In this document: piece by piece, positions 1-16,717 of the stretch
How the letters are laid out: every line of letters starts with the position of its first letter
Position numbering within the stretch: position 1 is the first letter of the stretch
Source: Micromonospora kangleipakensis
GTDB taxonomy: Bacteria; Actinomycetota; Actinomycetes; Mycobacteriales; Micromonosporaceae
Assembly (NCBI RefSeq): GCF_004217615.1
Contig: NZ_SHLD01000001.1
Location: forward strand, 6,076,001-6,140,000
Direction: 5' to 3'
Length of the DNA: 64,000 nucleotides
Position numbers and translations under genes: made by a program
Notes under the pieces: model-generated
What the model saw: the letters and a program-made list of their open reading frames with translations, nothing else
What the model was told of the DNA's origin: nothing
Database searches by the model: none

Positions 1-3000
1 GACGAGCTGGGCGGGCCCGCCGGCCCGGGCGAGGTGACCGGACCGCCCGACGCCCCGCGGGTGGTGCTGGTCGACGACAACCCGGACCTGCGTGCCTACG
101 TCACCGAGCTGCTCGCGCCGCATTTCGGGGTCCGCACCGCCGGGGACGGCCGGGCCGCGCTGGCGGCGATCGTCGCCGACCCGCCGGACCTGGTGCTGGC
201 GGACGTGATGATGCCGCACCTGGACGGCTTCGGCCTGCTCGCCGCGCTGCGCGCGGACCCGCGCACCGCGGACCTGCCGGTGGTGCTGCTCTCCGCCCGG
301 GCCGGACCGGAGGCGGCGGTGGAGGGGCTCGCCGCCGGCGCGGACGACTACCTGGTCAAGCCCTTCTCGGCGAGTGAGCTGCTGGCCCGGGTGCGGGCCA
401 ACCTGGCCCGGGCCCGGGCCCGGCTGCGCCGGGGCGAGTGGGCGACGCAGGTGGTCGAGTCGATCACCGACGGGGTGTGGGTCGCCGACGAGAACGGCGT
501 CGTCTTCCAGGTCGACGAGACGTTCGAGCGGCTGACCGGCTACGGCCAGGCGGACGCGCCGTATCCGCCGCCGTACCCGTGGTGGCCGGACCCGGTCACC
601 CACCCGGAGGAGCGGGCGCTGCTGGACCGGGCGCTGGTGCACCTGCTCGGCGAGCGCACCGGGGCGTGGGAGGTGCCGTTCCAGCACCGGGACGGCCGGA
701 CCCACTGGGTCTCCGTCTCCGCGACGGAGGTGCGCGACCCGGAACACGACCGCACCCTGCTGGTCGGCACCGTCCGGGACGTGACCGCCGAGCACGCGGT
801 GACGCAGCGGCACCGGGCCGCCGCCGCGCTGGCCGACCGGCTCGCCGAGGTGGCCGCCGAGGACGAGGTGCTCGCGCTGACCGCGGCGGCGCTGAGCCAG
901 GCCTTCGCCGGTACCGCGTACCTGCTCCCCCGCGACGGCGACGGCCCGGCGCACACCGCGGCCGGGCCGGTGGCCGTGGCGGAACTCGACCCGACGGTGG
1001 CGGCCCGGTTGGCGCGGCCCGGGGACGACGAGGGGACGGACGCGGCGGTGTTCGGGGTCGGCGGGCGGCTGAGCACCCCGACCCGGGCGTGGGCGGTCTG
1101 GGTGGCGTTCGCCGCGCCGCGCGCGGTCCGCGCCGACGAGCGGATGCTGGGTGGGCTGCTCACCGCCGCCGGCAGCCAGGCGCTGCGCCGGGTGGAGGCG
1201 GTACGCCAGCAGCACGCGCTCACCGACGGGCTGCGCGACGCGGTCCGGGAGGCCACCGAGCGGGAGCGCGCCTGGCGGGCCGAGGCGGCCGCCCGGGCCG
1301 ACCAGCAGCGGGCCGAGGCGGCGGCCCGGCGCACCGCCACGGTCAGCGAGGCGCTGCTGGACAGCGCCCCGGTCGGCGTCGGCCTGGTCGACACCGAGCT
1401 GCGCTACCTGCTGGTCAACCCGGCGCTGGCGGCGATGAACCGGCTGCCCGCCGCCGACCACCTCGGCCGGCGGCCGAGCGAGTGCCTGCCGGTGTACGAG
1501 CCGCGGATCGAGGAGCTGATGCGCCGGGCCCTGGCGCACGGGCCGATCGTCGGTGTCGAGTTCACCGCCGAGGCGGCCCCGCCGGCGACCGGCCGGCAGC
1601 ACGTGGTGGCCAGCTACTTCCCGATCCGGATCGCCGACACCGGCGAGCTGGTCGGGCTCGGCTTCACCATCGTCGACGTCACCGAACGCACCCGGCTGCT
1701 GGAGGCGCTCGGCGCCGAGCGGGCCCGCCACGAGCGGCTGGCCGCGACCGACGTGCTCGCCGTCTTCGGCGGCGAGGAGGAGCGGATCACCGAGGCCAAC
1801 GAGGCGTTCCTCGCCCTGCTCGGCTACACCGCCGAGGACGTGGCGCGGGGGCGGTTGACCTTGTCGGACCTCACTCCCCCGGGCTGGGAGGAGGCCGACG
1901 CGCGGGCCCTGGCGGAGCTGACGGAGAGCGGCCGGGCCCGGGCGTACGACAAGGAGTACCGGCACGCCGACGGGCGCCGGGTGCCGGTGCAGATCGGCGT
2001 GGTGGCGTTGGAGCGGAAGCCCTTGCGCTGGTTGGCGTACGCCACTGACCTGAGCGCCGAGCGGGCCGCGCAGGCCGAGCTGCGGCTGTTCCAGGCGCTG
2101 GTGGAGCGGTCGGGCGACTTCATCGCGGTGGCCACCCCGGACGGCCGGGCGGTCTACGTCAACCCGGCCGGCCGGCAGCTCGTCGGGCTCGGCGAGGTCG
2201 ACCGGGTCGATGGGCTGGGACTGGTCGACTTCGCCGCGCCGGACGTACGGGAGGTGTGGCGGCGCGAGCTGATCCCCACCGCGCTGCGCGAGGGCCAGCA
2301 CCGGGCGGAGAGTCGGCTGGTCCGCCTGGACACCGGCGAGCAGTTCGAGGTGGAGCACCAGACGTTCACGGTGACGACCGGGGACGGGCGGGACAGCACC
2401 GCGTTCGTCGCCACGGTGGCCCGGGACATCGGCGACCGGCAGCGGGCGTTGCGGCAGGCGGAGGGGCTGGCCCGGCTGGCCGGGGCGCTCAGCTCGGCGC
2501 GGGGCCGGGCGGCCATCGTCGACGTGGTGACCACGGTCGTCCCGTCGGTGGTGGGGGCCGCCGCGCTCCGGGTCGCGATCGCCCCGCCGGGCGCGCTCAC
2601 CCTCGACGTGGCCGGGGGCGGCGATCCGGCCGGCCAGCTGCCGGTGGAGGCCGACGAGCCGTTGGCCCGGGCGGTCCGCGACAACGTCGTGCTGCCGGTC
2701 GACCCGGCGGGCGGCCGGACGGCGGGCATCTGCCTGCCGCTGCGGTACGGCGACGGCGGCGCGCTGGGCGCGCTGGAGGTCCGCTGGGCGCGGCCGGTCG
2801 CCGACGACGAGGCGCTGCGCAACCTGCTGCACGCGGTGGCCGGGCTGTGCAGCCAGGCGCTGCAGCGGGCCGAGCTGACCGGTTCGGCGCAGGCGATGGC
2901 CGACTTCGCGGCCCGGCTGAGCGTCGCCCGGTCCACCACGGAGGCGGTCGAGGTGATCCTCACCGCGGCGCCGATCGCGCTGGGGGCCGCCCTGCCCGGC

Positions 3001-4074
3001 CTCGCCATCCACGACGAGGGGCGCCGGATCCGGCTCTGGTACAACGACGAGGTGCCCACCGGGCTGGCCGCCACCTACCGCGATCTGATGATCGACGACC
3101 CGCGGCCGATCGCCCGGGCGCTGCGCACCGGTGAGCGGATCATCCTGCGCAACCGGGCCGAGTTCGCCGCCCGGTTCCCCGGCCTGCCGGACCCGGTCGG
3201 GGCGCACGGCATGGTCACCACGGTGGCGCTGCCGCTGTTCGACGCGCAGCGCCGGCCGATCGCCGCGCTGGGCTTCGGCTGGCGGCGGGAACGGTCGCTG
3301 CGCGAGAGCGACCTGACGCTGCTGGACACCCTCGCCGACCTGTGCGAGCAGACCCTGGAGCGGGTCCGGCTGGCCGCCGCCGAGCACAACCTGGTGACCC
3401 GGTTGGCCGGGCGGCTGCGCAGTTCGGCGCGGAGCACCCCGAGCGGGTTGGAGATCGCCACCCGCTATCAGCCGGCGATGAGCGGCCTGCACCTCGGCGG
3501 GGACTGGTACGACCTGGTCCGGCTGGACCAGGACCGGCTCGCGGTGGTGGTCGGCGACGTGGTCGGGCACCGGGTGGAGGCGGCCGCCGACATGGCGCAG
3601 CTGCGCACCATGCTCAACACGCTGATCCGGCTGGGGGTGCCGCTGGAGGAGGTGCTGCTCCGGCTCACCGACCTGCTGGGGGTGGGTTTCCTCGGCACCT
3701 GCCTGGTGATGGTGGTCGACCCGGTGGCCGGGGAGGTACGGGTCGCCCGGGCCGGTCATCCGCATCCGGTGCTGCTGCCCCGGGGCCGGCCGGCGGAGCC
3801 GGTCCACACCGTCAACGCCTTGCCGATGGGCATGGTGGACGAGCCGATGACGGTCACCACCGTGCCGTTCGGCCCGGGTGACCTGCTGGTGGCGTACACC
3901 GACGGGCTGGTGGAGCGCCGCGAGCGGGCGTACGACGAGGGGGTGGCGGCGCTGCACCGGGCGGTGGAGGCGGTCCGTGACCGGCCGGTGGAGGCGATCG
4001 CCGACGCGCTGCTGGCCGACCTCGCCGGCGGCGAGGACGACCAGGCCCTGGTGGTGATCCGGCACGTCGGCTGA
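1..4074 (+). CDS. Hybrid signalling protein: receiver-PAS-GAF-PP2C phosphatase (5' end outside window)
   Basis: Cytoplasmic multi-domain signalling protein ending in a SpoIIE/RsbU-type PP2C serine phosphatase, a class that normally controls anti-sigma-factor antagonists. Counting from the GTG at 34, a receiver domain lies at about residues 10-130 (VLVDDN, phospho-Asp in LADVMMP, Lys in LVKPF). PAS domains follow at about 135-255, 445-560, 570-685 and 690-810, with GAF-like regions at about 265-400, 815-960 and 965-1120. The PP2C domain (about 1140-1345) shows GDWYD near 1156 and a terminal GGEDDQ, so the metal-binding acids are present. The frame is open upstream of the GTG to the window edge, and a Gly/Pro linker before a receiver is typical after a histidine-kinase ATPase domain. 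I infer the gene starts outside the window and may be a hybrid histidine kinase. The partner anti-sigma system is not in the window. Confidence 0.85.
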
Positions 4075-7316: not shown

Positions 7317-9719
7317 GTGGACACGACACGCGTGCCGCGACAGGTGCTGCTTACCTGGCAAGACATCGCTGACGCCGCCTCAGGTCTCGACGTTGACATG
7401 CGCGAACTGCTGCTGGAACTCGTCCACGAGAAAGGCACGGCTTCGACAACGAGCGTCACCACCGCCGAGGGACCGTGGTACGTCCGTGCGGTCCGTGTGC
7501 GCGGGCACATCGGCGTCGGCGAGCACCCGGTCAACCTGGATCTCACTCCGACAACTGGCCTGACTGTCGTCACCGCCCGCAACGGCACGGGCAAGACCAG
7601 CATCGCCGACGGATGCCGGCACAACCTCAGTGGAGGCGCCAAACGCTCTTATCAAGTCCTGGCCGAGAACGTCCACTACCGCGAGCGCGATGTAGTGGTA
7701 ACCCTCACCAACGGGACTCGCGAAATCGAGATCCTGTGCGGGCCCGATGAGGTCGTACGATGGCGCGACCCTGACGGCGAGCTGTCCACGCCACCCGCCG
7801 AGTGGAGCGAGGCGTTCGAACGCTACATGCCGGTGCTGCTGTATCCCGAGATGTCGCAGGTCATCCAGGATCCGAGCAACCTACACGCCTTCCTCAAGGA
7901 CGCGCTTGAACTTGCAGCGTTGGAGGATCTGCAGGCGAGGCTGAAGGCCATCCGTGAAGCTGGCACAGCCGCGCAGCGCACCGTGGACGCCGCCCACAAG
8001 GCCGCGCTGAACGGCGTGACGAAGGTCGGCCACCAGGAGCTGGCGGCCTTGCTGCGATCTCACGGCGGGGTCGCCGACGACGGCGCTCTCGAGCAGATCC
8101 GCTTGCTTTCGGCCGGCCTCCCGGACACCACGCCTCCGCCACTGAGCCTGCCCGAGCTGTGGATGGTGGACGAGCAGCGGCGCACCACCGCCATCGCGGC
8201 GCTGACCGAACTGGCCAGGATTCGCGAGTCGACTGCCACCGACACCCGACCGATGCTCGACGCGCTCAGGAGGCTACTCAGAGCGGACGATCCGGCGACT
8301 GCGCACAACCGCGACCACGATGTGTGCCCGGTATGCCAGGCAGGCGGCCGCGACTGGGTAAAGCTCGCCACGGAGGAGATGAACCGCCTAAGCCTGAGTT
8401 CGAAGGCCCTACGGAACGCGGAGAGGGCTGCATCCGCGGCGCTGGAACAGGCGGCAGCGTGTTTTCCCCCAGCGCTGACGGCCTCTCTGCGTCAAGCGCT
8501 GGCACACCATGCGGACCCAACGTGCAATCTCCGGATCAAGCAATGGGATCGCCTCACGCTCAATAGAGGAGGCCTGACCACGGCCGAACTGTCCCCCGCC
8601 GGGCTCGGGGCGTTGCTGGACGAGTGCGCTGACCTGGCCGAGTGGTACGGACCGATCCGCGAGGATCTGTTCGCTCAGCGTGATGACGCAATCGCCGCAC
8701 AGGCAGCCGTGCGCGTCCATGTCGAATCATGGATCGACACCCTCAGCCAGGAACGTCCAACGCTCGCCCGGCTCGTTGTCGCCGAACGGCTCCACCGCAA
8801 GGTGGACGGGTGGCTGCGCACCGCCCGCGAGGACATCTTCGAACCCATTGGCGAGGAGGTGATCGAGCTGTGGTCCATCCTCAACTCCGACGCCGATCTG
8901 AAGCTGACCGAGATCGCCCTCACTGGCGGGACCCAGCGCCGACGGGGCGTAACTTTGGGTCTGGCGGACGGCGACGTGGCCCTGCCGACGGGAAAGAACA
9001 GCTCAGCAGTGCTGAGCACCGGGCAGCGCAACGCCCTCTCCCTCGCTACATACCTGCCACGGGCCACCCAGCAGAAGAGCCCATTCGGGTTCCTCATCCT
9101 CGACGACCCCATCCACGCCTTCGACACCTGGCGCGTTCGTTACCTCGCCGCCCACCTTCTCAAGCTCGCTGAGCGCTTTCAGGTCGTCGTGTTCACCCAC
9201 GACGACCGGCTCTGGCGCGAGCTACGCGGGCTAGGCGCTCGACCCGCTCACGTCCGAATGGACCGGCGCGGAGACCGCAATCCGCAGGTGCGGGTCACCA
9301 ACATCACCAGCCCGGGTAATCAGATGCTTGCCGACCTACAGAAGATTCTGGGCGAGGAAAGTGGACCATCGGCGATCGGAACACCCGAGGCCCAGACGGC
9401 GATGACCTTGGCGATGTGCCGTCAAGCTCTCGACACCGAGGTGGTTACCCAAATCGAAATCCTAGGCCGGCGTACCCAGCTTCCGGAGGCGAAGATCGTC
9501 GCCGATCTCAAGAGAGCACGGAAGACCCGTGACCAGATCGAGCTTCTCAACGACTACGCCCAACTCGCCCAACTGAGGCCCGTGCGGATCGGTCCGTACG
9601 AGCCAACAATCCAAGCGCTCAATGGCGGTTCCCACGGTCGCGTTCCCGCGGGTGAGCTCAAGGAGTGGGTACGCCATACGCGCAAGATCATCAAGGCCGT
9701 TCAGGCGATCGGGGGTTGA
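7317..9719 (+). CDS. Rad50/RloC-like ABC ATPase with CPVC hook
   Basis: An 800-aa SMC/Rad50-type ATPase. Walker A (RNGTGKTS) is near residue 87 and a CPVC pair, as in Rad50-type zinc hooks, lies near 337 inside a helical insertion. The ABC signature (LSTGQRNAL) is near 566, Walker B (FLILDDP, second Asp instead of Glu) near 592 and the H-loop (FTHDD) near 626. The LDDP variant is common in RloC/PrrC/AAA_13-like defence ATPases. About 170 residues follow the ATPase. They contain CRQALD (Arg702, Asp706) and NGGSHG (Asn769, His773), which loosely resembles the R...E...N-x-x-SH pattern of PrrC/RloC HEPN-type nucleases. The GTG start has GAGAGG upstream; the longer frame before it has no SD. The next gene starts one base after the stop. 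A defence role is inferred from the architecture and the adjacent type I RM operon; nuclease activity is a hypothesis. Confidence 0.85.
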   Translation: MDTTRVPRQVLLTWQDIADAASGLDVDMRELLLELVHEKGTASTTSVTTAEGPWYVRAVRVRGHIGVGEHPVNLDLTPTTGLTVVTARNGTGKTSIADGCRHNLSGGAKRSYQVLAENVHYRERDVVVTLTNGTREIEILCGPDEVVRWRDPDGELSTPPAEWSEAFERYMPVLLYPEMSQVIQDPSNLHAFLKDALELAALEDLQARLKAIREAGTAAQRTVDAAHKAALNGVTKVGHQELAALLRSHGGVADDGALEQIRLLSAGLPDTTPPPLSLPELWMVDEQRRTTAIAALTELARIRESTATDTRPMLDALRRLLRADDPATAHNRDHDVCPVCQAGGRDWVKLATEEMNRLSLSSKALRNAERAASAALEQAAACFPPALTASLRQALAHHADPTCNLRIKQWDRLTLNRGGLTTAELSPAGLGALLDECADLAEWYGPIREDLFAQRDDAIAAQAAVRVHVESWIDTLSQERPTLARLVVAERLHRKVDGWLRTAREDIFEPIGEEVIELWSILNSDADLKLTEIALTGGTQRRRGVTLGLADGDVALPTGKNSSAVLSTGQRNALSLATYLPRATQQKSPFGFLILDDPIHAFDTWRVRYLAAHLLKLAERFQVVVFTHDDRLWRELRGLGARPAHVRMDRRGDRNPQVRVTNITSPGNQMLADLQKILGEESGPSAIGTPEAQTAMTLAMCRQALDTEVVTQIEILGRRTQLPEAKIVADLKRARKTRDQIELLNDYAQLAQLRPVRIGPYEPTIQALNGGSHGRVPAGELKEWVRHTRKIIKAVQAIGG

Positions 9720-9720
9720 G

Positions 9721-10164
9721 GTGGCTACCTTTCCTGACGTCAGCATCAACGATCTTGAGACGGCCTATGCCGCGTGGCCCGATGACCCCAGAGGGAAAAC
9801 AGCCCTGTGGGCGCTGATCCTGAGGGTACGGATCGAGCGGGCTGCGGCGAACCTGCCCGGCACGGTCATCGCCGCGCAGCCGGACATCTCCCTCATCGAA
9901 AGGCGGCTGTATTTGAGCATCGGCGAGCCGGGGCTTACGCATGAAGAGCGAGTCCGGCGGATGCGGGTCATCGCCGCAGGGGTAGGCACCTACCAGTCCA
10001 TTTGCGAGTTGCTACACGGGCGCAACCCGGATCCGACGCCGCCGATACAAGATGTGGAGGCATGGACGGCCGCCGTCGACAATCTCGAACTTGAGTTGTG
10101 CATCACCCGACCTGAGCAACCGCTCGTGCTGGATCAACCCTCACTAACCACCACGGTTCCCTAG
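9721..10164 (+). CDS. Small partner protein of the ABC ATPase (unknown family)
   Basis: 147-aa mostly helical, soluble protein with no recognised motif, signal peptide or membrane segment. The GTG start lies one base after the ATPase stop codon and is preceded by GGGGG, so translation is almost certainly coupled and the two proteins probably work together. Position and size resemble the small middle components of Lamassu/ABC-three-component systems, which is an analogy only. There is no HNH, PD-(D/E)xK or HEPN signature. Single Cys residues (ICELL, ELCIT) do not form a metal site. It converges with hsdM 39 nt downstream, without a clear hairpin between them. Confidence 0.75.
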   Translation: MATFPDVSINDLETAYAAWPDDPRGKTALWALILRVRIERAAANLPGTVIAAQPDISLIERRLYLSIGEPGLTHEERVRRMRVIAAGVGTYQSICELLHGRNPDPTPPIQDVEAWTAAVDNLELELCITRPEQPLVLDQPSLTTTVP

Positions 10165-10203: not shown

Positions 10204-11721
10204 TCAGCTTTCGATGTCCAAGCCCTCAGCAGCCGTACTGGGAGCGCGAGAGTTGAGGGCATCCGCGATGGCGGCGAACTCGCGTAGCGCCGCCTCCAGG
10301 TCCTCGACAATCTCCTGGGCGATCACCTCGGGTGGCAGGAGCGCGTCGGCGTCCTCCAGGGAGGCGTCCTTGAGCCAGGTGATGTCGAGGTTCACCTTGT
10401 CTCGGGTGATCAGTTCGTCGTAGGAGAAGGCCCGGAACCGCTCGGCCTCGACCCGTTCGGCGCGGTCCTTGCCGGGCAGGTAGCAGTCCACGAAGTCCTG
10501 GAGGTGTTCGCGGCGCAGCGGGTTCTGCTTGAGGGTGAAGTGCTGGTTGGTGCGGAAGTCGTACACCCAGAGTTTTTGGGTCCACGGCTCCTCGCGGGCG
10601 CGCTTGCGCTCGAAGAAGAGCACGTTGGCCTTCACCCCGCCGGCGTAGAAGATGCCGGTGGGCAGGCGCAGCAGGGTGTGCAGGTCGTACTGCTTGAGCA
10701 GCCGGCGGCGGATGGTCTCCCCCGCGCCGCCCTCGAAGAGCACGTTGTCGGGCAGCACGACGGCGGCCCGGCCGTCGATCTCCAGCAGCGAGGCGATGTG
10801 CTGGACGAAGTTGAGCTGTTTGTTGGCGGTGGTGGCCCAGAAGTCGTTCCGCTCGATCTCCCGCTCCTCGCGGGTGGACCGTCCGTCCTCGCCGACCATC
10901 CGGATCGAGGAGCTGCGGCCGAACGGCGGGTTGGCGAGGACAAGGCTGTAGCGCCGGTCCGGCTCCCTGCCGAGAGCGTCCCTGATCGCGATCAGGGATT
11001 CCCCACTCGGCGTGCCGATGCCGTGCAACAGCATGTTCATCGCGGCCAGCCGGGCGGTGCCGTCGACCAACTCGGTGCCGGTGATCGCGCCACCCGCGAG
11101 CCGGCGGCGCTGACCCGGGGTGAGTGCACTGCCGTGGTGCCGCTGGATGTGGTCGAACGCGGCGAGCAAGAAGCCGCCGGTCCCGCAGGCCGGGTCGGTG
11201 ATGGTGTCGTCCGGGGTGGGCAGCATGCAGTCGACCATCGCGGCGGTCAACGCCCGCGGCGTGAAGTACTGCCCGGCACCCGACTTCGCGTCCTCGGCGC
11301 CCTTGGCCAGCAGCTCCTCGTAGGCGTCACCCTTGACGTCGACGCCGGCCTGCGACCACTGCTCCTTGTCGATCAGGTCGACGATCAGCCGCTTGAGCTT
11401 CGCCGGGTCCTGGATCTTGTTCTGGGCCTTGCGGAAGATCGTGCCGAGCGTGCCGCCCTCCCGGGCAAGCCCGGTCAGGATGTGCCGATACTGCACCTCC
11501 AGCGCGTCGCCCTCGGCGTCGAGCAGGGTCTGCCAGCTCAGCTCGTCCGGCACGATCTGCTCCGGCCTGATCGGCCGCTTGGCACGCTCGTCGGCCATCT
11601 TCAGGAACAGCAGGAACGTCAACTGCTCCACGTAGTCGATGGTGGAGACCCCGTCGTCCCGCAGCACGTCGCAGTAATTCCACAGCTTCTGCACCAGCCG
11701 GCGCGAATCCACAGTGCTCAC
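10204..11721 (-). CDS. hsdM: Type I restriction-modification system, DNA methyltransferase subunit HsdM
   Basis: N6-adenine methyltransferase subunit, 505 aa. The N-terminal helical HsdM_N region (VQKLWNYCDVLRDDGVS...YVEQLTFLLFLKM) is followed by the AdoMet motif DPACGTGGF (about residue 172) and the catalytic NPPF (about 262). A coiled C-terminal tail ends it. The family is usually 480-530 aa, so it is complete. GTG overlaps the hsdS stop as GTGA, so M is made by translational coupling as the last gene of an R-S-M operon. With two HsdS-recognised half-sites it methylates host DNA and forms the core of the restriction complex. Confidence 0.95.
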   Translation of the reverse strand: MSTVDSRRLVQKLWNYCDVLRDDGVSTIDYVEQLTFLLFLKMADERAKRPIRPEQIVPDELSWQTLLDAEGDALEVQYRHILTGLAREGGTLGTIFRKAQNKIQDPAKLKRLIVDLIDKEQWSQAGVDVKGDAYEELLAKGAEDAKSGAGQYFTPRALTAAMVDCMLPTPDDTITDPACGTGGFLLAAFDHIQRHHGSALTPGQRRRLAGGAITGTELVDGTARLAAMNMLLHGIGTPSGESLIAIRDALGREPDRRYSLVLANPPFGRSSSIRMVGEDGRSTREEREIERNDFWATTANKQLNFVQHIASLLEIDGRAAVVLPDNVLFEGGAGETIRRRLLKQYDLHTLLRLPTGIFYAGGVKANVLFFERKRAREEPWTQKLWVYDFRTNQHFTLKQNPLRREHLQDFVDCYLPGKDRAERVEAERFRAFSYDELITRDKVNLDITWLKDASLEDADALLPPEVIAQEIVEDLEAALREFAAIADALNSRAPSTAAEGLDIES

Positions 11722-13229
11722 AGCGGCAGTGCCTCCTGCTGGTAGTCGTCGCCGGTCACCCTGGTCGGCGGCGCCGGCAGCTCCTTTTGGGTACGCCGAG
11801 AGCGCACCTTCTGTTTCGGCAACGCGGCTGGCCGTTCGGCTTGGATCCGGGCCAGCAACTCTGACGCCGGCTCGTCATTCGGATCCTGCGGGACCAGCCG
11901 CCCGGCGAACGCCTCCACGAGCACTGACTTCCGCAAGTGATCCGCACGATCTGCCGCTGTTGCCGAAAGATCTCCGACGACCTCAATCCTCGTCAGCAAC
12001 CTATCGGCGAACTCAACTATCCGCTTCTGTTCAGCAAGGGGCGGTACCGGCAGAGGCAACTCTCTACAGGTCGACAGGGCGATGTTGAACTGCCCAGCAG
12101 TCGCCTTCGCCGTTTGCTGCAGGAACCCAAGGATTAGCGGAGATTGAAGGGCTAACGCGAGCCACTGGGGCAAGACATCGGACCCGGCTCTGAACGCGAC
12201 AATCGCTTGGTTGATGTTCCACTCCGCATGCATGGCTGGCACGACGGCAGTCTTCCCGAGCGGTGGGCCCACAATATTCGTGAGGACGTCACCTGGCCTC
12301 ACGCGAGAGCGGCGAAGCAATCCCGCGTGCGTCGACCTATCGATATAGGTCGGACGGATCGAGAAATCAACGTGTCCCGAGCCTGCAAGATTGTAAACCT
12401 TCAGAAAGGGAATCTCGCCATTTCCGGCGTACATGTGAGATGCCACCGGCGTACCGCCTGAGACAATCGAGCTGCAGACCTCGTGGGCAACTCGCCACTT
12501 CCAACCGTCGGGCAAAAGCGGCAGGCCATCATAGCTGATCTTCTTAGCCACCCTGCCTTGCAATTCGGAGAAACAGCTATCCTGCACGGGCCCGCGAGCG
12601 GCCGGCAAAAATCTGCCCTCAACGATGCTGTCGAGGAGGTTGTTACGCAGCGTCTTGGCTCGCGGCTTCACGGCTTGGACGGAGTTAGCCGCAGCATCTA
12701 GACGTGACAGGTGGTCTTCGAGTGCGGCGACGATGCGGCGCTGCTCGGCGAGCGAGGGAAGTGGTAGCCGCACGGACTTGAGCTTTCCTGTGCTCAGCGT
12801 ATAAAGCCCGCTTGTGGAGCCGGCGACTTCGCGAAGGTGACGCGCGACAAGAGGCGAATTCCAGACCAGCTCAAGATACTTGTATAGGAGCGCGGCGGTG
12901 GGGCGGACACGAATCAGATGGTTCTGATGCACGCATCTGTCGATGCTACCGTCCCAGATGGCCGCACGACCGATCTGGTCAGGGCTACCGTTTCCCTCCA
13001 CTACCAAGAGGTCCCCACGCCGCAGCCCGAACCGCTCCAACTCCCCGTCGAACAGCTCGACCTCGTGAACATCAGCAAGGTCAAGCTTGCCTCGGTGCAC
13101 GTTGGCCACCCGCAGGAACGGGTACTTGTTCAGCACTGGTCGACGCTTGGCTTGCTTCTGGATACCGCCCTGTACGTCGGCAACGTCAGCCAGGTCAACC
13201 CAGACCCAACCTGCCGGTAGAACAGTCAC
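11718..13229 (-). CDS. hsdS: Type I restriction-modification system, specificity subunit HsdS
   Basis: 503-aa DNA-recognition subunit with the usual duplicated layout. The first target-recognition domain (LPAGWVWVDLADVADVQGG...) ends with LPSLAEQRRIVAALEDHLSRLD. The second (LPDGWKWRVAHEVCSSIVSGG...) ends with VPPLAEQKRIVEFADRLLTRIE. The GTG start overlaps the hsdR TGA (GTGA) and has AGGAG upstream; the longer open frame upstream overlaps hsdR and is not used. Both recognition domains, especially the second (about 12150-12600), are visibly poorer in G/C than the neighbours, which fits recent exchange of recognition domains. The recognition sequence cannot be predicted here. Confidence 0.95.
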   Translation of the reverse strand: MTVLPAGWVWVDLADVADVQGGIQKQAKRRPVLNKYPFLRVANVHRGKLDLADVHEVELFDGELERFGLRRGDLLVVEGNGSPDQIGRAAIWDGSIDRCVHQNHLIRVRPTAALLYKYLELVWNSPLVARHLREVAGSTSGLYTLSTGKLKSVRLPLPSLAEQRRIVAALEDHLSRLDAAANSVQAVKPRAKTLRNNLLDSIVEGRFLPAARGPVQDSCFSELQGRVAKKISYDGLPLLPDGWKWRVAHEVCSSIVSGGTPVASHMYAGNGEIPFLKVYNLAGSGHVDFSIRPTYIDRSTHAGLLRRSRVRPGDVLTNIVGPPLGKTAVVPAMHAEWNINQAIVAFRAGSDVLPQWLALALQSPLILGFLQQTAKATAGQFNIALSTCRELPLPVPPLAEQKRIVEFADRLLTRIEVVGDLSATAADRADHLRKSVLVEAFAGRLVPQDPNDEPASELLARIQAERPAALPKQKVRSRRTQKELPAPPTRVTGDDYQQEALPL

Positions 13230-16200
13230 GCGGACAGCTCCTGGTTCAGCTCGTCGAGGAGGGGTTCGGCGCGGTTGCCGAAGACGTGGGCGTAGCCGTC
13301 GAGGCCGCCGCGTTCGGTGAACGGGGCGCCGTCCAGGTCGTCCGCGGTGATCTCCACGCTGACCGCTATCACGTCCTTGATCCTCTCCAGCCACCACGTC
13401 TGATCAGCAGTGAACGTAGCGCCCGCCTGCTCCTGCCGGAGCAGCCACCCACGGAAGCGCTCCTCGATCAGGCTGCGGTAGGGGCGCAGCTCCTGGTCGA
13501 GCCCCAACTCATACCGGATGAGGGTGACAAGGTCTGTCACACCCCGGCTGCCCGGCGCCTCGGCGGTCCGCCCGAGCAGCACGTACGCCTTCCACAGCGA
13601 CTCCGGCGTCCACGCCTGCGGGGGCCGCTCGATCCGCGCGGCCAACTCCTTGAGCTGGTCGTAGCCGACCCGGCTTCGACCATCGAAGAAGACCTGCAAC
13701 GCGGTGATCTCGTCGCGGTGCTGTTCCAGGTAGTCGTGCCAGCTCTTCACGGTGACCTGCGCACGCTCCTCGGCCGGCACGCCGGCCGCCGAGATCAGCG
13801 TGTCGGCGTTCACCTCGTCGATGGTGATGTCGTGCGCCCGCCGGATCTCCAGGATGCGTTCACGCAGCGCCGGGTTCGCGGCGAGGGGACGCAGCGCGCC
13901 CGCCAGCAGATCGCGTACGGCCTCCGGCCCGGCCTGCTTGGCCGGGTTGAGCTGCTCGGGGGCGATCGCGTCGACCAGGCCGCGCACGATGCCGGTCAAC
14001 GGTTGCTCGGCGAGGTCGGCCAGCTCGTGGCGCTCGGCGTCGGTCAGCTGCTGATTGAGCCGGGACAGCCGGGCGGCGAGGGTGGCCACCTCGTCCGGGC
14101 CGGCGGTCAGCGTGCCGGCCTTCTTGAGCAGGTCCCGCAGCGAGATCTGCCGTTCAGAGTGCCGTTGCAGCGGCACCGCCTCGTCCAGGTCAGCCTCGGT
14201 GACACCGACCGCGTCAATGATGACGAACCGCTCCTTGACCTCGGCATCCGGCGTGACCGCCTGGAAGTCAGCGGGGTCGATGGTTCGAGCGCCGCGCCCC
14301 TTCATCTGCTCGAAGTAGGTGGCACTGCGCACCGGACGGAGAAAGAACACGCACTCCAACGGCCGGATGTCGGTGCCGGTGGCGATCATGTCGACAGTCA
14401 CCGCGATGCGCAGCTCAGGGCTGTTGCGGAACGCCTGAATGAGCCTGTCCGGGTTGCCTCCGTCCCGCCGGGAGGCATAAGTGATCTTTGTGGCGAAGTC
14501 ATTGCCCAACCCGAAGACGAGCCGGACCATGGTCACGATCTCCTCGGCGTGGTTGTCGTCGCGCGCGAAGATCAGGGTCTTGGGCACGGTTGACCGGCCC
14601 GGGAAGATCTCTGTGAAGAGCCGGTCCCGGAAGGTCTCCAGCACCAGCTTGAGCTGCCCCTTGGAGATCACCGACCGGCCGACCTGGCTGCCGGCGTACG
14701 TGAAGTCGTCCTCCAACTCCTCGTAGCGCTCGGCCCGGGTGCGCCGGTCGCGCAGCGGCACGACCGTGCCGGCCTCGATCTTCTCGCCGGCCTCGGTGAT
14801 CTGCGTCTTGATCCGGTACACGTCGAAGTTGACGTTTACCCCATCGGCGACCGCCTGCTCGTAGGTGTACTCCGAGACCAGGTTCTGCTGGAAGAAGCCC
14901 AGCGTCTGCTTGACGGGCGTCGCCGTCAGGCCGACTACGAACGCGTCGAAGTATTCGATCACGGCTCGCCACTTGCCGTAGATCGAGCGGTGGCACTCAT
15001 CCACGACGATCAGATCGAAGGTCTCCGGCGCGATCTGGGGGTTGTAGCCGACTTCGGCCGGCGCGTCCAGGTCGTAGCTGTCGTACTCCCGGTCGTCCAG
15101 GTCGACGTCCGGGATCTCAGCGCCGCGCAGCGCGCCGTAGAGCCGCTGAATCGTCGAGATCACCACCGCCGACGAGTCGAGCATCCCCGCCCCGGACAGC
15201 CGGTCGACGTTGTACAGGTCAATGAACTTCCGCCCGTCATCCGGAGTCTGATAGGCGGCGTACTCCCGCAGGGTCTGCTTACCGAGGTTGTTACGGTCGA
15301 CCAGGAACAGGATCCGGTCGGCGCGGGCGTGCTTGATCAGACGGTAACTGGCCGTCACCGCGGTGAACGTCTTCCCCGCGCCGGTCGCCATCTGAATCAG
15401 AGAGCGGGGCCTGTCCTCGCCCAAGGACCGCTCCAGCCCCTCAATGGCGTCGATCTGGGCCGGCCGCAGACCGAGCCGGTCCAACTCCGGCATCCGGCGT
15501 AGCCGGGCCCGCAGCGTCGGCGCCTCTGGCTCGTCGTCCGCCTCGCGCATCCACCGCGCGAGGGTCTCCGGCCGGTGGAAAGCGAAGACCTCCCGGGTAC
15601 GAGGAAACGGATCCAGCCGGTTGACGAATGCGGTCTCCGTCCCGGTGGCGACGTATCCGAACGGCAAGGGCGCATCCCGCCGCCACGCGGCGAGCTTCTG
15701 TTCGGCCGTGAGTCCCTTCAGGTAGCGGTCAAGCTGGGCCTCCACCCCTCGGGGGGCGGTGCCCTCCCGCTTGGCCTCGATCACGCCAACTAGCCGCTGG
15801 TTGACGTAGAGCAGATAGTCGGCTCGGCCCGTCGCCAGGGTCACCTCGCGCACGGCCACGCCAGTGCTCGCGTATGGGTTGATCTGGCTCTCGTCCTGGA
15901 CCACCCACCCGGTCGCGGCAAGCTGCCGGTCGATCTCGAGCCGGGTCTGCATCTCGTTCAACGGTTCGTGGGAGGCGCGCCGTGCGCGGGCTATGAAGTC
16001 CTCCCGCTTGGCCGCTGAGACCTTGGCGACCTTTGCGCTCTCGAACTCACGCTGAGCAGCCTGGACCGCCGGCTCCAGACTCGTGACCAGCGCCGCTGCC
16101 TCGTCTCGGCGGGCTTCCGCATCGCGCACGGCACGCTCGGCCGCCACCGCCGCCTCGGCCTGGGCCTGGGCAAGCGACGCCTTGCCCTCCAGGAGCAGCT

Positions 16201-16717
16201 TCGTGTCAGCCAATTCCTGCTTGTAGCGGAGGATCTCGGCCTGGAGTCCGTCGACCACAGCCGCGGGCACCTGCTGGGGCGGCGGCGTGGGTGGCACGAA
16301 CCCGACAGGCGAGCGGTCGCCGGTCAGCGCGCGGTGGAACCAGAGCCCCAGCTCGAAGCTTGTGCGGAGCAGCTCCAGGGCGGTTCGCACCTCGTCGAGG
16401 TGGTCATGCACCGCCTGGTTGCCCACGTTGCGCAGACGCTCGAAGGCGGCATAGATGTGGGGAACAAGGGTGCCGTCGGCGTTGAGCGCCTGCACCTGGT
16501 GCACGAACTTGCCACTCACCGGCCTGGCGTTGGTGCGCCGGACAAGGTCCCGGGCCAGTACCTCACCGAAGCTGCGGGTCTTGAACATCGCCGCCTGGGC
16601 GTCGACGTAGATGAGGGACTCCGCCCCCGCGCCGTAGAAGACCAACAGCGGGTGGTCCTTCAAGAACCCGAAGTTGGCGGATCCTTCCGCCAACCGTCGC
16701 ATCTGTCGAGGATCCAC
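13226..16717 (-). CDS. hsdR: Type I restriction enzyme, endonuclease/translocase subunit HsdR
   Basis: 1163-aa restriction subunit. The N-terminal ~150 residues (HPLLVFYGAGAESLIYVDAQ) look like a DUF4145-type domain, followed by an Ala/Glu-rich coiled coil (about 165-250). The nuclease site is GRADYLLYV...GVIEAKREG (about 300-322). SF2 motifs follow: ATGAGKTF (443), DECHRS (572), TATPVK (597), then helicase motif VI-like MKGRGART and the EcoEI-type C-terminal domain. The start is a GTG (GGAGAG just upstream); an ATG five codons later is an alternative. It is the first gene of the hsdRSM operon, an unusual order compared with the enterobacterial R-M-S and the common M-S-R. Confidence 0.95.
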   Translation of the reverse strand: MDPRQMRRLAEGSANFGFLKDHPLLVFYGAGAESLIYVDAQAAMFKTRSFGEVLARDLVRRTNARPVSGKFVHQVQALNADGTLVPHIYAAFERLRNVGNQAVHDHLDEVRTALELLRTSFELGLWFHRALTGDRSPVGFVPPTPPPQQVPAAVVDGLQAEILRYKQELADTKLLLEGKASLAQAQAEAAVAAERAVRDAEARRDEAAALVTSLEPAVQAAQREFESAKVAKVSAAKREDFIARARRASHEPLNEMQTRLEIDRQLAATGWVVQDESQINPYASTGVAVREVTLATGRADYLLYVNQRLVGVIEAKREGTAPRGVEAQLDRYLKGLTAEQKLAAWRRDAPLPFGYVATGTETAFVNRLDPFPRTREVFAFHRPETLARWMREADDEPEAPTLRARLRRMPELDRLGLRPAQIDAIEGLERSLGEDRPRSLIQMATGAGKTFTAVTASYRLIKHARADRILFLVDRNNLGKQTLREYAAYQTPDDGRKFIDLYNVDRLSGAGMLDSSAVVISTIQRLYGALRGAEIPDVDLDDREYDSYDLDAPAEVGYNPQIAPETFDLIVVDECHRSIYGKWRAVIEYFDAFVVGLTATPVKQTLGFFQQNLVSEYTYEQAVADGVNVNFDVYRIKTQITEAGEKIEAGTVVPLRDRRTRAERYEELEDDFTYAGSQVGRSVISKGQLKLVLETFRDRLFTEIFPGRSTVPKTLIFARDDNHAEEIVTMVRLVFGLGNDFATKITYASRRDGGNPDRLIQAFRNSPELRIAVTVDMIATGTDIRPLECVFFLRPVRSATYFEQMKGRGARTIDPADFQAVTPDAEVKERFVIIDAVGVTEADLDEAVPLQRHSERQISLRDLLKKAGTLTAGPDEVATLAARLSRLNQQLTDAERHELADLAEQPLTGIVRGLVDAIAPEQLNPAKQAGPEAVRDLLAGALRPLAANPALRERILEIRRAHDITIDEVNADTLISAAGVPAEERAQVTVKSWHDYLEQHRDEITALQVFFDGRSRVGYDQLKELAARIERPPQAWTPESLWKAYVLLGRTAEAPGSRGVTDLVTLIRYELGLDQELRPYRSLIEERFRGWLLRQEQAGATFTADQTWWLERIKDVIAVSVEITADDLDGAPFTERGGLDGYAHVFGNRAEPLLDELNQELSA

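What the first reader, a model, noticed from the sequence alone, without database searches (positions are those of the whole stretch)
7317..10164. RloC/Rad50-like zinc-hook ATPase plus tiny partner beside a type I RM operon: candidate RM-linked defence system
The 800-aa ATPase has a split ABC domain, a CPVC hook motif, an LDDP Walker B and a ~170-aa C-terminal extension containing R-x3-D (702/706) and N-x2-SH (769-773). RloC and PrrC, known anticodon nucleases that guard type I RM systems, combine an ABC ATPase (RloC with a zinc hook) with a HEPN-type R/E/H C-terminus. The gene is coupled to an unknown 147-aa protein and converges on hsdRSM. The combination with a small partner, in an actinomycete, is not one I recognise. 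The nuclease assignment is weak (Asp in place of Glu).
Basis: partly seen in the sequence, partly recalled or inferred. Interest (0 to 1): 0.7.

Follow-up and report, generated by a model that had tools for sequence, protein, structure and literature searches.

The report
Zinc-hook ATPase with small helical partner
An actinomycete carries a two-gene cassette, a Rad50-like ATPase and a tiny helical protein, that looks like an anti-phage device resembling RNA-cutting suicide enzymes, and whose small partner is not described in the databases searched.

Summary
An 800-aa Rad50/SMC-type ATPase (CPVC hook, LDDP) with a C-terminal helical tail bearing R702-x3-D706 and N-x2-S-H773 is followed by a 147-aa gene, converging on hsdMSR inside a low-GC stretch. 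The small gene matched nothing in Pfam, NCBIfam, PADLOC or PHROGs.

What tools add: tail and partner are a unit. A partner lies directly downstream in 55 of 55 unique tailed homologues and 0 of 4 tailless ones; 33 of 33 partner places found independently adjoin an ATPase or its remnant. Tail Arg (54/55) and His (55/55) are near-invariant, with Glu 46 / Asp 9. The partner carries its own R-x3-E...H. Methyltransferase genes lie within 10 kb of 17 of 41 loci (0.24 expected), but within the window's clade only beside the window; relatives sit by other defence or mobile genes.

Most likely a two-component, Rad50-gated, HEPN-like RNase defence: RloC-like in logic, not an RloC (AAA_13 cut-off, Glu and spacing not met). 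The HEPN fold was not demonstrated: no significant Foldseek match for the partner; the tail was barely tested. Function is inferred. New variant of a known kind.

The parts
7317..9719 (+). Rad50/SMC-like ABC ATPase, 800 aa, split head with zinc-hook coiled coil and C-terminal helical tail
   Evidence: AlphaFold2 model (mean pLDDT 71.9, pTM 0.46); best VIA-align matches are Rad50, Smc and RecF heads, mostly over residues 53-675
8325..8336 (+). CPVC zinc-hook motif, residues 337-340
   Evidence: both Cys in all 16 aligned members
9099..9110 (+). Walker B / D-loop LDDP, residues 595-598
   Evidence: D596, D597, P598 invariant in 16 members
9312..9716 (+). C-terminal helical tail, residues 666-800, candidate HEPN-like domain; model helices 666-680, 690-719, 724-733, 737-750, 759-771, 781-799
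   Evidence: tail present in 55 of 59 usable homologues, absent in 4
9420..9434 (+). R702-x3-D706, on the long tail helix 690-719
   Evidence: R in 54/55, E 46 / D 9 of 55
9621..9635 (+). N769-x2-S-H773
   Evidence: His in 55/55; Asn in 24/55
9721..10164 (+). small partner, 147 aa, predicted five-helix protein
   Evidence: no family hit in Pfam, PADLOC, NCBIfam, PHROGs at E up to 1; model mean pLDDT 79.2, pTM 0.73
9823..9837 (+). partner R35-x3-E39 on helix 23-43
   Evidence: R-x3-E in 7 of 7 window-clade partners; helix
10015..10023 (+). partner H99-G-R101 just after helix 74-98
   Evidence: 7 of 7 window-clade partners
10204..11721 (-). hsdM, type I DNA methyltransferase, convergent neighbour
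   Evidence: N6_Mtase 4e-63, HsdM_N 4.5e-13
11718..13397 (-). hsdS specificity subunit (longest ORF; overlaps hsdR, so the true start is probably further downstream)
   Evidence: Methylase_S 1.5e-16
13226..16717 (-). hsdR restriction subunit
   Evidence: ResIII 2.6e-35, EcoEI_R_C 1.4e-33, HSDR_N 9.3e-7

Best explanation
A two-component defence cassette. A dimer of the Rad50-like ATPase, joined at its zinc hooks and heads, senses invading or broken DNA or a disturbed restriction enzyme. Its C-terminal helical tail and the small partner are HEPN-like halves, each carrying R-x3-E/D and a distal His, that together form an RNase site kept silent by the ATPase and released on infection to stop translation and phage growth. 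Shown here: the ATPase fold and motifs, the strict pairing of tail and partner, the conserved R/E/H residues in both, and the defence context. Inferred: that tail and partner bind each other, that they adopt a HEPN fold, that they cleave RNA, what triggers them, and protection against phage.
For: Partner directly downstream in 55/55 tailed and 0/4 tailless homologues. Reciprocal: 33/33 places of a wider-family partner profile adjoin an ATPase (31) or a decayed ATPase end (2). Tailless ATPases nest within the tailed clade, which reads as joint loss of tail and partner (fork 94/97, not strongly supported). Tail R/E-D/H near-invariant. In 48 wider-family partners the Arg is in 48, Glu in 47, the two His in 48 and 47; E-to-H spacing is 48-52 in 46 of 48, inside RloC's published x36-52 (PMC2610378 passages); 31 of 48 also have the canonical HEPN R-x4-H at that site (motif from PMC3710099 passages). 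Tail and wider-family partner profiles align in register at both motifs, score 31-34 against 19-20 reversed. Distances of ATPase core and partner correlate in the 48 (Spearman 0.65, 0 of 300 permutations as high). Methyltransferase within 10 kb in 17 of 41 loci against 0.24 expected.
Against: No significant structural match for the partner model (best E 1.1; a HEPN toxin, 7ae6_B, ranks 42nd at E 4.4, TM 0.38). No profile similarity of the tail to RloC-like or other AAA_13 tails. Tail-partner similarity is not secure: on match columns it scores 25.9 against 21.6 for the reversed control (100 shuffles at most 16.1), reversed tails against circularly shifted partners reach 23.2, and one of 60 shuffles scored 134, unexplained. 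Window-clade and wider-family partners are hardly alike: no hit above the inclusion threshold, hhalign probability 0.5-5.5%. In the window D replaces E, the tail spacing is x66 and the partner spacing x59, both outside RloC's range, and neither chain has R-x4-H. No functional data.
Confidence: 0.48

Rival explanations
1. Toxin-antitoxin-like arrangement: the ATPase tail is the only nuclease and the small partner is its inhibitor or chaperone, released on infection.
For: Tightly coupled small gene absent when the tail is absent; window-clade partners have diverged strongly from the wider family while the ATPases remain clearly related.
Against: The partner keeps R-x3-E and His (47-48 of 48 in the wider family, 7 of 7 in the window clade), which a pure inhibitor need not do.
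Confidence: 0.2
2. DNA-handling complex: tail and partner form a structural or DNA-binding module on a Rad50-like ATPase (like kleisin, DndE with a zinc-hook CxC ATPase, or LmuC with LmuB), acting on foreign DNA together with neighbouring restriction enzymes, without an RNase.
For: ATPase head matches Rad50/SMC/RecF; hook ATPases with an obligate co-evolving small partner are known in Dnd systems (PMC10853773 passages); many loci adjoin type I RM, McrBC, GmrSD or helicase-nuclease genes.
Against: R-x3-E/D...H signatures in both tail and partner look catalytic; the partner model is all helix, unlike the ribbon-helix-helix of DndE; hook is CxxC, not CxC.
Confidence: 0.25
3. DNA-repair factor unrelated to defence.
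For: Rad50-like head; two plasmid relatives are annotated 'AAA family ATPase' with the double-strand-break-repair GO term.
Against: Patchy distribution, 56 of 296 class genomes; relatives on plasmid records (partial coverage); decayed copies; low-GC stretch; repeated defence neighbours.
Confidence: 0.07

Closest known systems
RloC anticodon nuclease
   Same: Split Rad50-like ABC head, CxxC zinc hook, C-terminal R-x3-E...H signature with Ser often before His, size 658-897 aa, rarely beside RM genes (8 of 73) (PMC2610378 passages)
   Different: Below the AAA_13 cut-off; triad spacing x66-77 instead of x36-52; Asp in the window clade; small second gene always present, with its own R-x3-E...H
PrrC anticodon nuclease
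   Same: ABC ATPase plus C-terminal R/E/H signature, linked to a type I RM locus (PMC2610378 passages)
   Different: PrrC is 341-416 aa without the zinc-hook insert; here 800 aa, hook present, convergent neighbour, partner gene
Lamassu (LmuB with LmuA/LmuC)
   Same: SMC-like ATPase with other subunits; LmuB is the best PADLOC hit (8.8e-14); LmuACB structures among the Foldseek matches
   Different: No LmuA or LmuC model matched among 10 window proteins scanned; own C-terminal tail
DndD/CxC ATPase with DndE
   Same: ABC ATPase with an obligate, co-evolving small partner in RM-like neighbourhoods (PMC10853773 passages)
   Different: CxxC not CxC hook; partner model has no strands
PADLOC candidate PDC-S06
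   Same: About 850-aa ATPase with a C-terminal extension beyond the matched head; hit 1.2e-9
   Different: Match confined to about 70 residues of the head; nothing else about PDC-S06 was looked up

Membership tests
RloC | Rad50-like ABC ATPase with CxxC zinc-hook insert | tested here: met
RloC | Arg-x3-Glu-x36-52-His in the C-terminal part | tested here: not met
   Window has Arg-x3-Asp-x66-His; family spacing 66-77, Glu in 46 of 55; published range; two RloC-like proteins here have x37 and x40
RloC | Pfam AAA_13 above its cut-off | tested here: not met
   E 0.096, 11.8 bits against 36; that AAA_13 marks RloC is recalled, and fits L158 and L159, found by this model
RloC | tail homologous to RloC tails | tested here: inconclusive
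   hhalign score 13.8 against 9.7 reversed, on AAA_13 tails in which that of L158 was cut short by the script
RloC | cleaves tRNA anticodon loops | not testable with these tools
   needs biochemistry
PrrC | linked to hsd genes of a type I RM system | tested here: met
   hsdMSR converge on the pair
PrrC | 341-416 aa, no zinc-hook insert | tested here: not met
   800 aa, CPVC
HEPN superfamily | all-helical HEPN fold | tested here: inconclusive
   tail and partner models all-helical; no significant Foldseek match for the partner; tail barely tested
HEPN superfamily | canonical R-x4-6-H motif (PMC3710099 passages) | tested here: not met
   Window tail and window partner lack it at the conserved His. 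In relatives: 31 of 48 wider-family partners have R-x4-H; 15 of 55 tails have an Arg 5-7 before the His. The paper notes HEPN families with altered motifs
Lamassu | LmuA and LmuC beside LmuB | tested here: not met
   10 window proteins scanned with PADLOC, none matches LmuA or LmuC in the rows shown (top 25 rows shown for hsdM and hsdS)
DndDE / CxC-DndE | DndE small partner with two ribbon-helix-helix units | tested here: not met
   partner model has no strands; no Pfam hit

The most novel reading that the evidence does not exclude
A previously undescribed, widespread actinomycete immune system in which an RNase active site is split between the tail of a Rad50-like zinc-hook ATPase and a separately encoded small HEPN-like subunit, so that an RNase heterodimer forms only on the sensor, and which has repeatedly been placed beside type I restriction systems as a back-up suicide device.
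Probability: 0.33. Interest if true: 0.78.

Novelty: new variant of a known kind. Interest (0 to 1): 0.6.

Why it matters
RloC and PrrC are single-chain guards; how the ATPase gates the nuclease is hard to test when both sit in one chain. A natural two-gene version, with a strictly co-inherited small subunit and a natural control (relatives lacking both tail and partner), makes the gating question directly testable. It would also suggest a function for a gene pair that the two Streptomyces plasmid records looked at name only 'AAA family ATPase' and 'hypothetical protein', and whose ATPase has relatives in 56 of 296 sampled genomes of its class (tailless and partial matches included).

Tried and rejected
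RM guard specific to this hsd system: weakened, because only the window among 6 clade members whose genomes were searched has a methyltransferase within 10 kb, although the wider family is RM-linked.

Viral copies: A1 in viral contigs gave 2 loci matching only 63 and 79 residues of the head; A2 gave none.

HEPN by profile: A2 against PDB sequences gave 4 weak hits, none a HEPN protein; Pfam on the 8 partner members gave only hits at E 0.05-0.14 to unrelated families; AAA_13 tails gave no match to tail or partner.

HEPN by structure: in the 50 rows shown, the whole ATPase model matched Rad50, SMC, RecF, RecN and similar heads, Lamassu, JetABC and a retron complex, and no HEPN protein; one domain can fill such a list. 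The partner model gave 199 matches at E <= 10 and 0 at E <= 0.001.

Literature: six library searches listed no paper whose title or abstract start describes such a pair. The 2020 ABC ATPase classification (PMC7544218) is not held, so it may already mention this clade; that is the main caveat on novelty. Of papers listed, only passages of PMC3710099, PMC2610378, PMC10853773 and PMC12839542 were seen.
Full report
What is there. The ATPase (7317-9719) and the small gene (9721-10164) are as described, one base apart, converging on hsdMSR. GC is 65.3% for the ATPase, 62.8% for the partner and 62-68% for the hsd genes, against 73.5% for the whole window, so the stretch from about 7.2 to 16.7 kb looks acquired, as one unit or as two. 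The ATPase matches SMC_N (1.4e-10, 41.4 bits against a cut-off of 40); AAA_13 is far below its cut-off. PADLOC's best hits (LmuB, mad3, PDC-S06) cover parts of the ATPase head and coiled coil, not the tail. The partner has no hit in Pfam, PADLOC, NCBIfam or PHROGs at E up to 1.

Relatives. ATPase relatives occur in 56 of 296 sampled genomes of the class and 82 of 300 of the family (samples overlap); not every match is full length. Five named relatives (40-64% identity) came from genome contigs. From the loci fetched (the best-scoring matches, not all), 60 unique ATPase loci were examined. One, L055, was a miscalled ORF at a decayed locus and is dropped (L152 shows only the end of an ATPase there). 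Of the other 59, 55 have a C-terminal tail and 4 (L024, L025, L029, L030) end within 40 residues of the FTHD switch.

Tail and partner go together. A partner is directly downstream in 55 of 55 tailed loci (48 of a wider-family type, 7 of the window's type) and in 0 of 4 tailless ones. Searching 246 genomes with a wider-family partner profile, which does not see window-type partners, gave 33 places in 31 genomes; by coordinates 31 adjoin an ATPase match, and the other two adjoin decayed ATPase ends. In a tree of 59 ATPase cores the window type is one clade (100/100) and the four tailless rows group together inside the tailed set (fork 94/97, not strongly supported), which reads as one joint loss. 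Among the 48 wider-family loci, distances of core and partner correlate (Spearman 0.65), as do tail and partner (0.59) and core and tail (0.63), each with 0 of 300 permutations as high. Co-inheritance is thus shown; that the two act together is the natural inference.

Signatures. In 55 tails Arg is kept in 54 (Lys 1), the residue four further on is Glu in 46 and Asp in 9, and the distal His is in all 55; the spacing to His is 66-77. Asn four before the His is in only 24 of 55; Ala (28), Ser (10) or Val (10) mostly precede the His. Published RloC: Arg-x3-Glu-x36-52-His, Ser often before His, each residue needed for activity in G. kaustophilus RloC (PMC2610378, passages). Two RloC-like proteins found here, L158 and L159, have x37 and x40. 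Of 48 wider-family partners, Arg is in 48, Glu in 47 (Gln 1), the two His in 48 and 47; spacing is 48-52 in 46, and the pattern gave 42 (L083, at another site, as its Glu is Gln) and 65 (L095, where the second His is not at the usual place). In 31 of 48 an Arg completes the canonical HEPN R-x4-H. Window-type partners keep R-x3-E-x58-59-H-G-R in 7 of 7 and lack R-x4-H there. So both chains carry an R-x3-E/D...H signature.

Are tail and partner HEPN domains? Unproven. In hhalign the tail and wider-family partner profiles align in register at both motifs (scores 30.8 and 33.8, probability 45% and 63%; reversed 20.4 and 19.3; reversed tails against 56 circular shifts of the partner, at most 23.2). 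On match columns alone the score is 25.9; 100 column shuffles reach at most 16.1, but the reversed control reaches 21.6. One of 60 shuffles gave 134, an outlier that I did not trace; it did not recur when gap-rich columns were removed. Window-type against wider-family partners: not found by hmmsearch above its threshold and 0.5% probability, 1.6%, and 21.4 over 93 columns, 5.5%, against 10.5 reversed. Tail against window-type partners: 1.5%. The tail shows no profile similarity to RloC-like or other AAA_13 tails. AlphaFold2 with six sequences gives a moderate ATPase model (mean pLDDT 71.9, pTM 0.46; blocks of 76-90 from residue 691 on, but 69 around H773) with R702 and D706 on a long helix and H773 just after another. 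The partner is a five-helix protein (mean pLDDT 79.2, pTM 0.73) with R35/E39 in helix 2 and H99 just after helix 4. Foldseek and VIA-align place residues 53-675 with Rad50, SMC and RecF heads; the tail was barely tested. The partner model has no significant PDB match (0 of 199 at E <= 0.001); a HEPN toxin is 42nd, E 4.4, TM 0.38.

Neighbourhoods. Methyltransferases (PF02384, 52 bits or more) lie within 10 kb of 17 of 41 loci, with 0.24 expected from each genome's own number. The 41 are loci I chose among the best matches in 40 genomes; they are related, so the computed probability (1e-28) overstates independence. Neighbours chosen for Pfam (30 proteins; 10 of 30 had no hit) include HsdM, HsdS, HsdR, McrBC, GmrSD, a DUF6361/PLD/helicase set, HIRAN and helicases, some with nuclease domains; PADLOC gives type I methyltransferase hits for two divergently placed genes next to the ATPase. 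In the window's clade the relatives lie near Abi_2, AAA_15 and GmrSD_N genes (L031), Mrr_cat (L034), a Cas3-like helicase and a group II intron protein (L081), a phage integrase (L082, same contig as L032 by length and protein) and a weak nSTAND match (L033); none of the 5 whose genomes were searched has a methyltransferase within 10 kb. So the window's hsd linkage is likely a separate association, which agrees with the RM-guard idea without proving it.

Mechanism and verdict. Combining the RloC/PrrC precedent (ABC ATPase gating a C-terminal R/E/H nuclease; PMC2610378 and PMC3710099 passages) with strict tail-partner pairing and R-x3-E/D...H in both chains, the best-supported reading is a Rad50-gated RNase assembled from tail and partner. 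Fold, activity, trigger and defence are inferred. By the membership tests it is not filed as RloC, PrrC, Lamassu or DndDE. It is a new variant of the ABC ATPase plus nuclease guard kind. Six library searches listed no description, but the 2020 ABC ATPase survey was not available.

Noticed in passing
window 13226-16717 (-): The HsdR carries an N-terminal DUF4145 match (1.5e-5, residues 32-116), a family that PMC3710099's table (passage) lists as HEPN-type and fused to restriction endonucleases.
   Followed up: no
L077 8494-11034 (G000:C1:4168000-4187000): The same genome has a second, distant copy of the pair with a wider-family partner, an RNase H-like gene upstream and an N6 methyltransferase 3.6 kb away.
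   Followed up: partly
L024, L025, L029, L030: Tailless, partnerless ATPases with a CPTC hook from one family (f18) nest within the tailed set; their function without tail and partner is unknown.
   Followed up: partly
L084 10790-14326 and L088 10853-14620: Related 1178- and 1255-aa genes downstream of the pair, followed by a large gene clustering with a DEAD-box helicase; the first has no Pfam or PADLOC match.
   Followed up: no
L085 6666-7931 and L086 10859-12205: A DndB-like gene (PF14072, 3.7e-8, in L085) and its relative in L086 sit just upstream of the ATPase.
   Followed up: no
L150, L151, L152: Decayed copies of the cassette: two with a partner beside an ATPase remnant, one with only an ATPase end.
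   Followed up: yes
L119 4265-6696: Bradyrhizobium plasmid with two adjacent genes, an 'AAA family ATPase' and a hypothetical protein that holds the matched head part, as if the ATPase were split, beside an AbiEii pair.
   Followed up: no
window 34-4074 (+): Long ORF that by eye looks like a receiver/PAS/GAF sensor with a PP2C-type phosphatase end; not searched.
   Followed up: no
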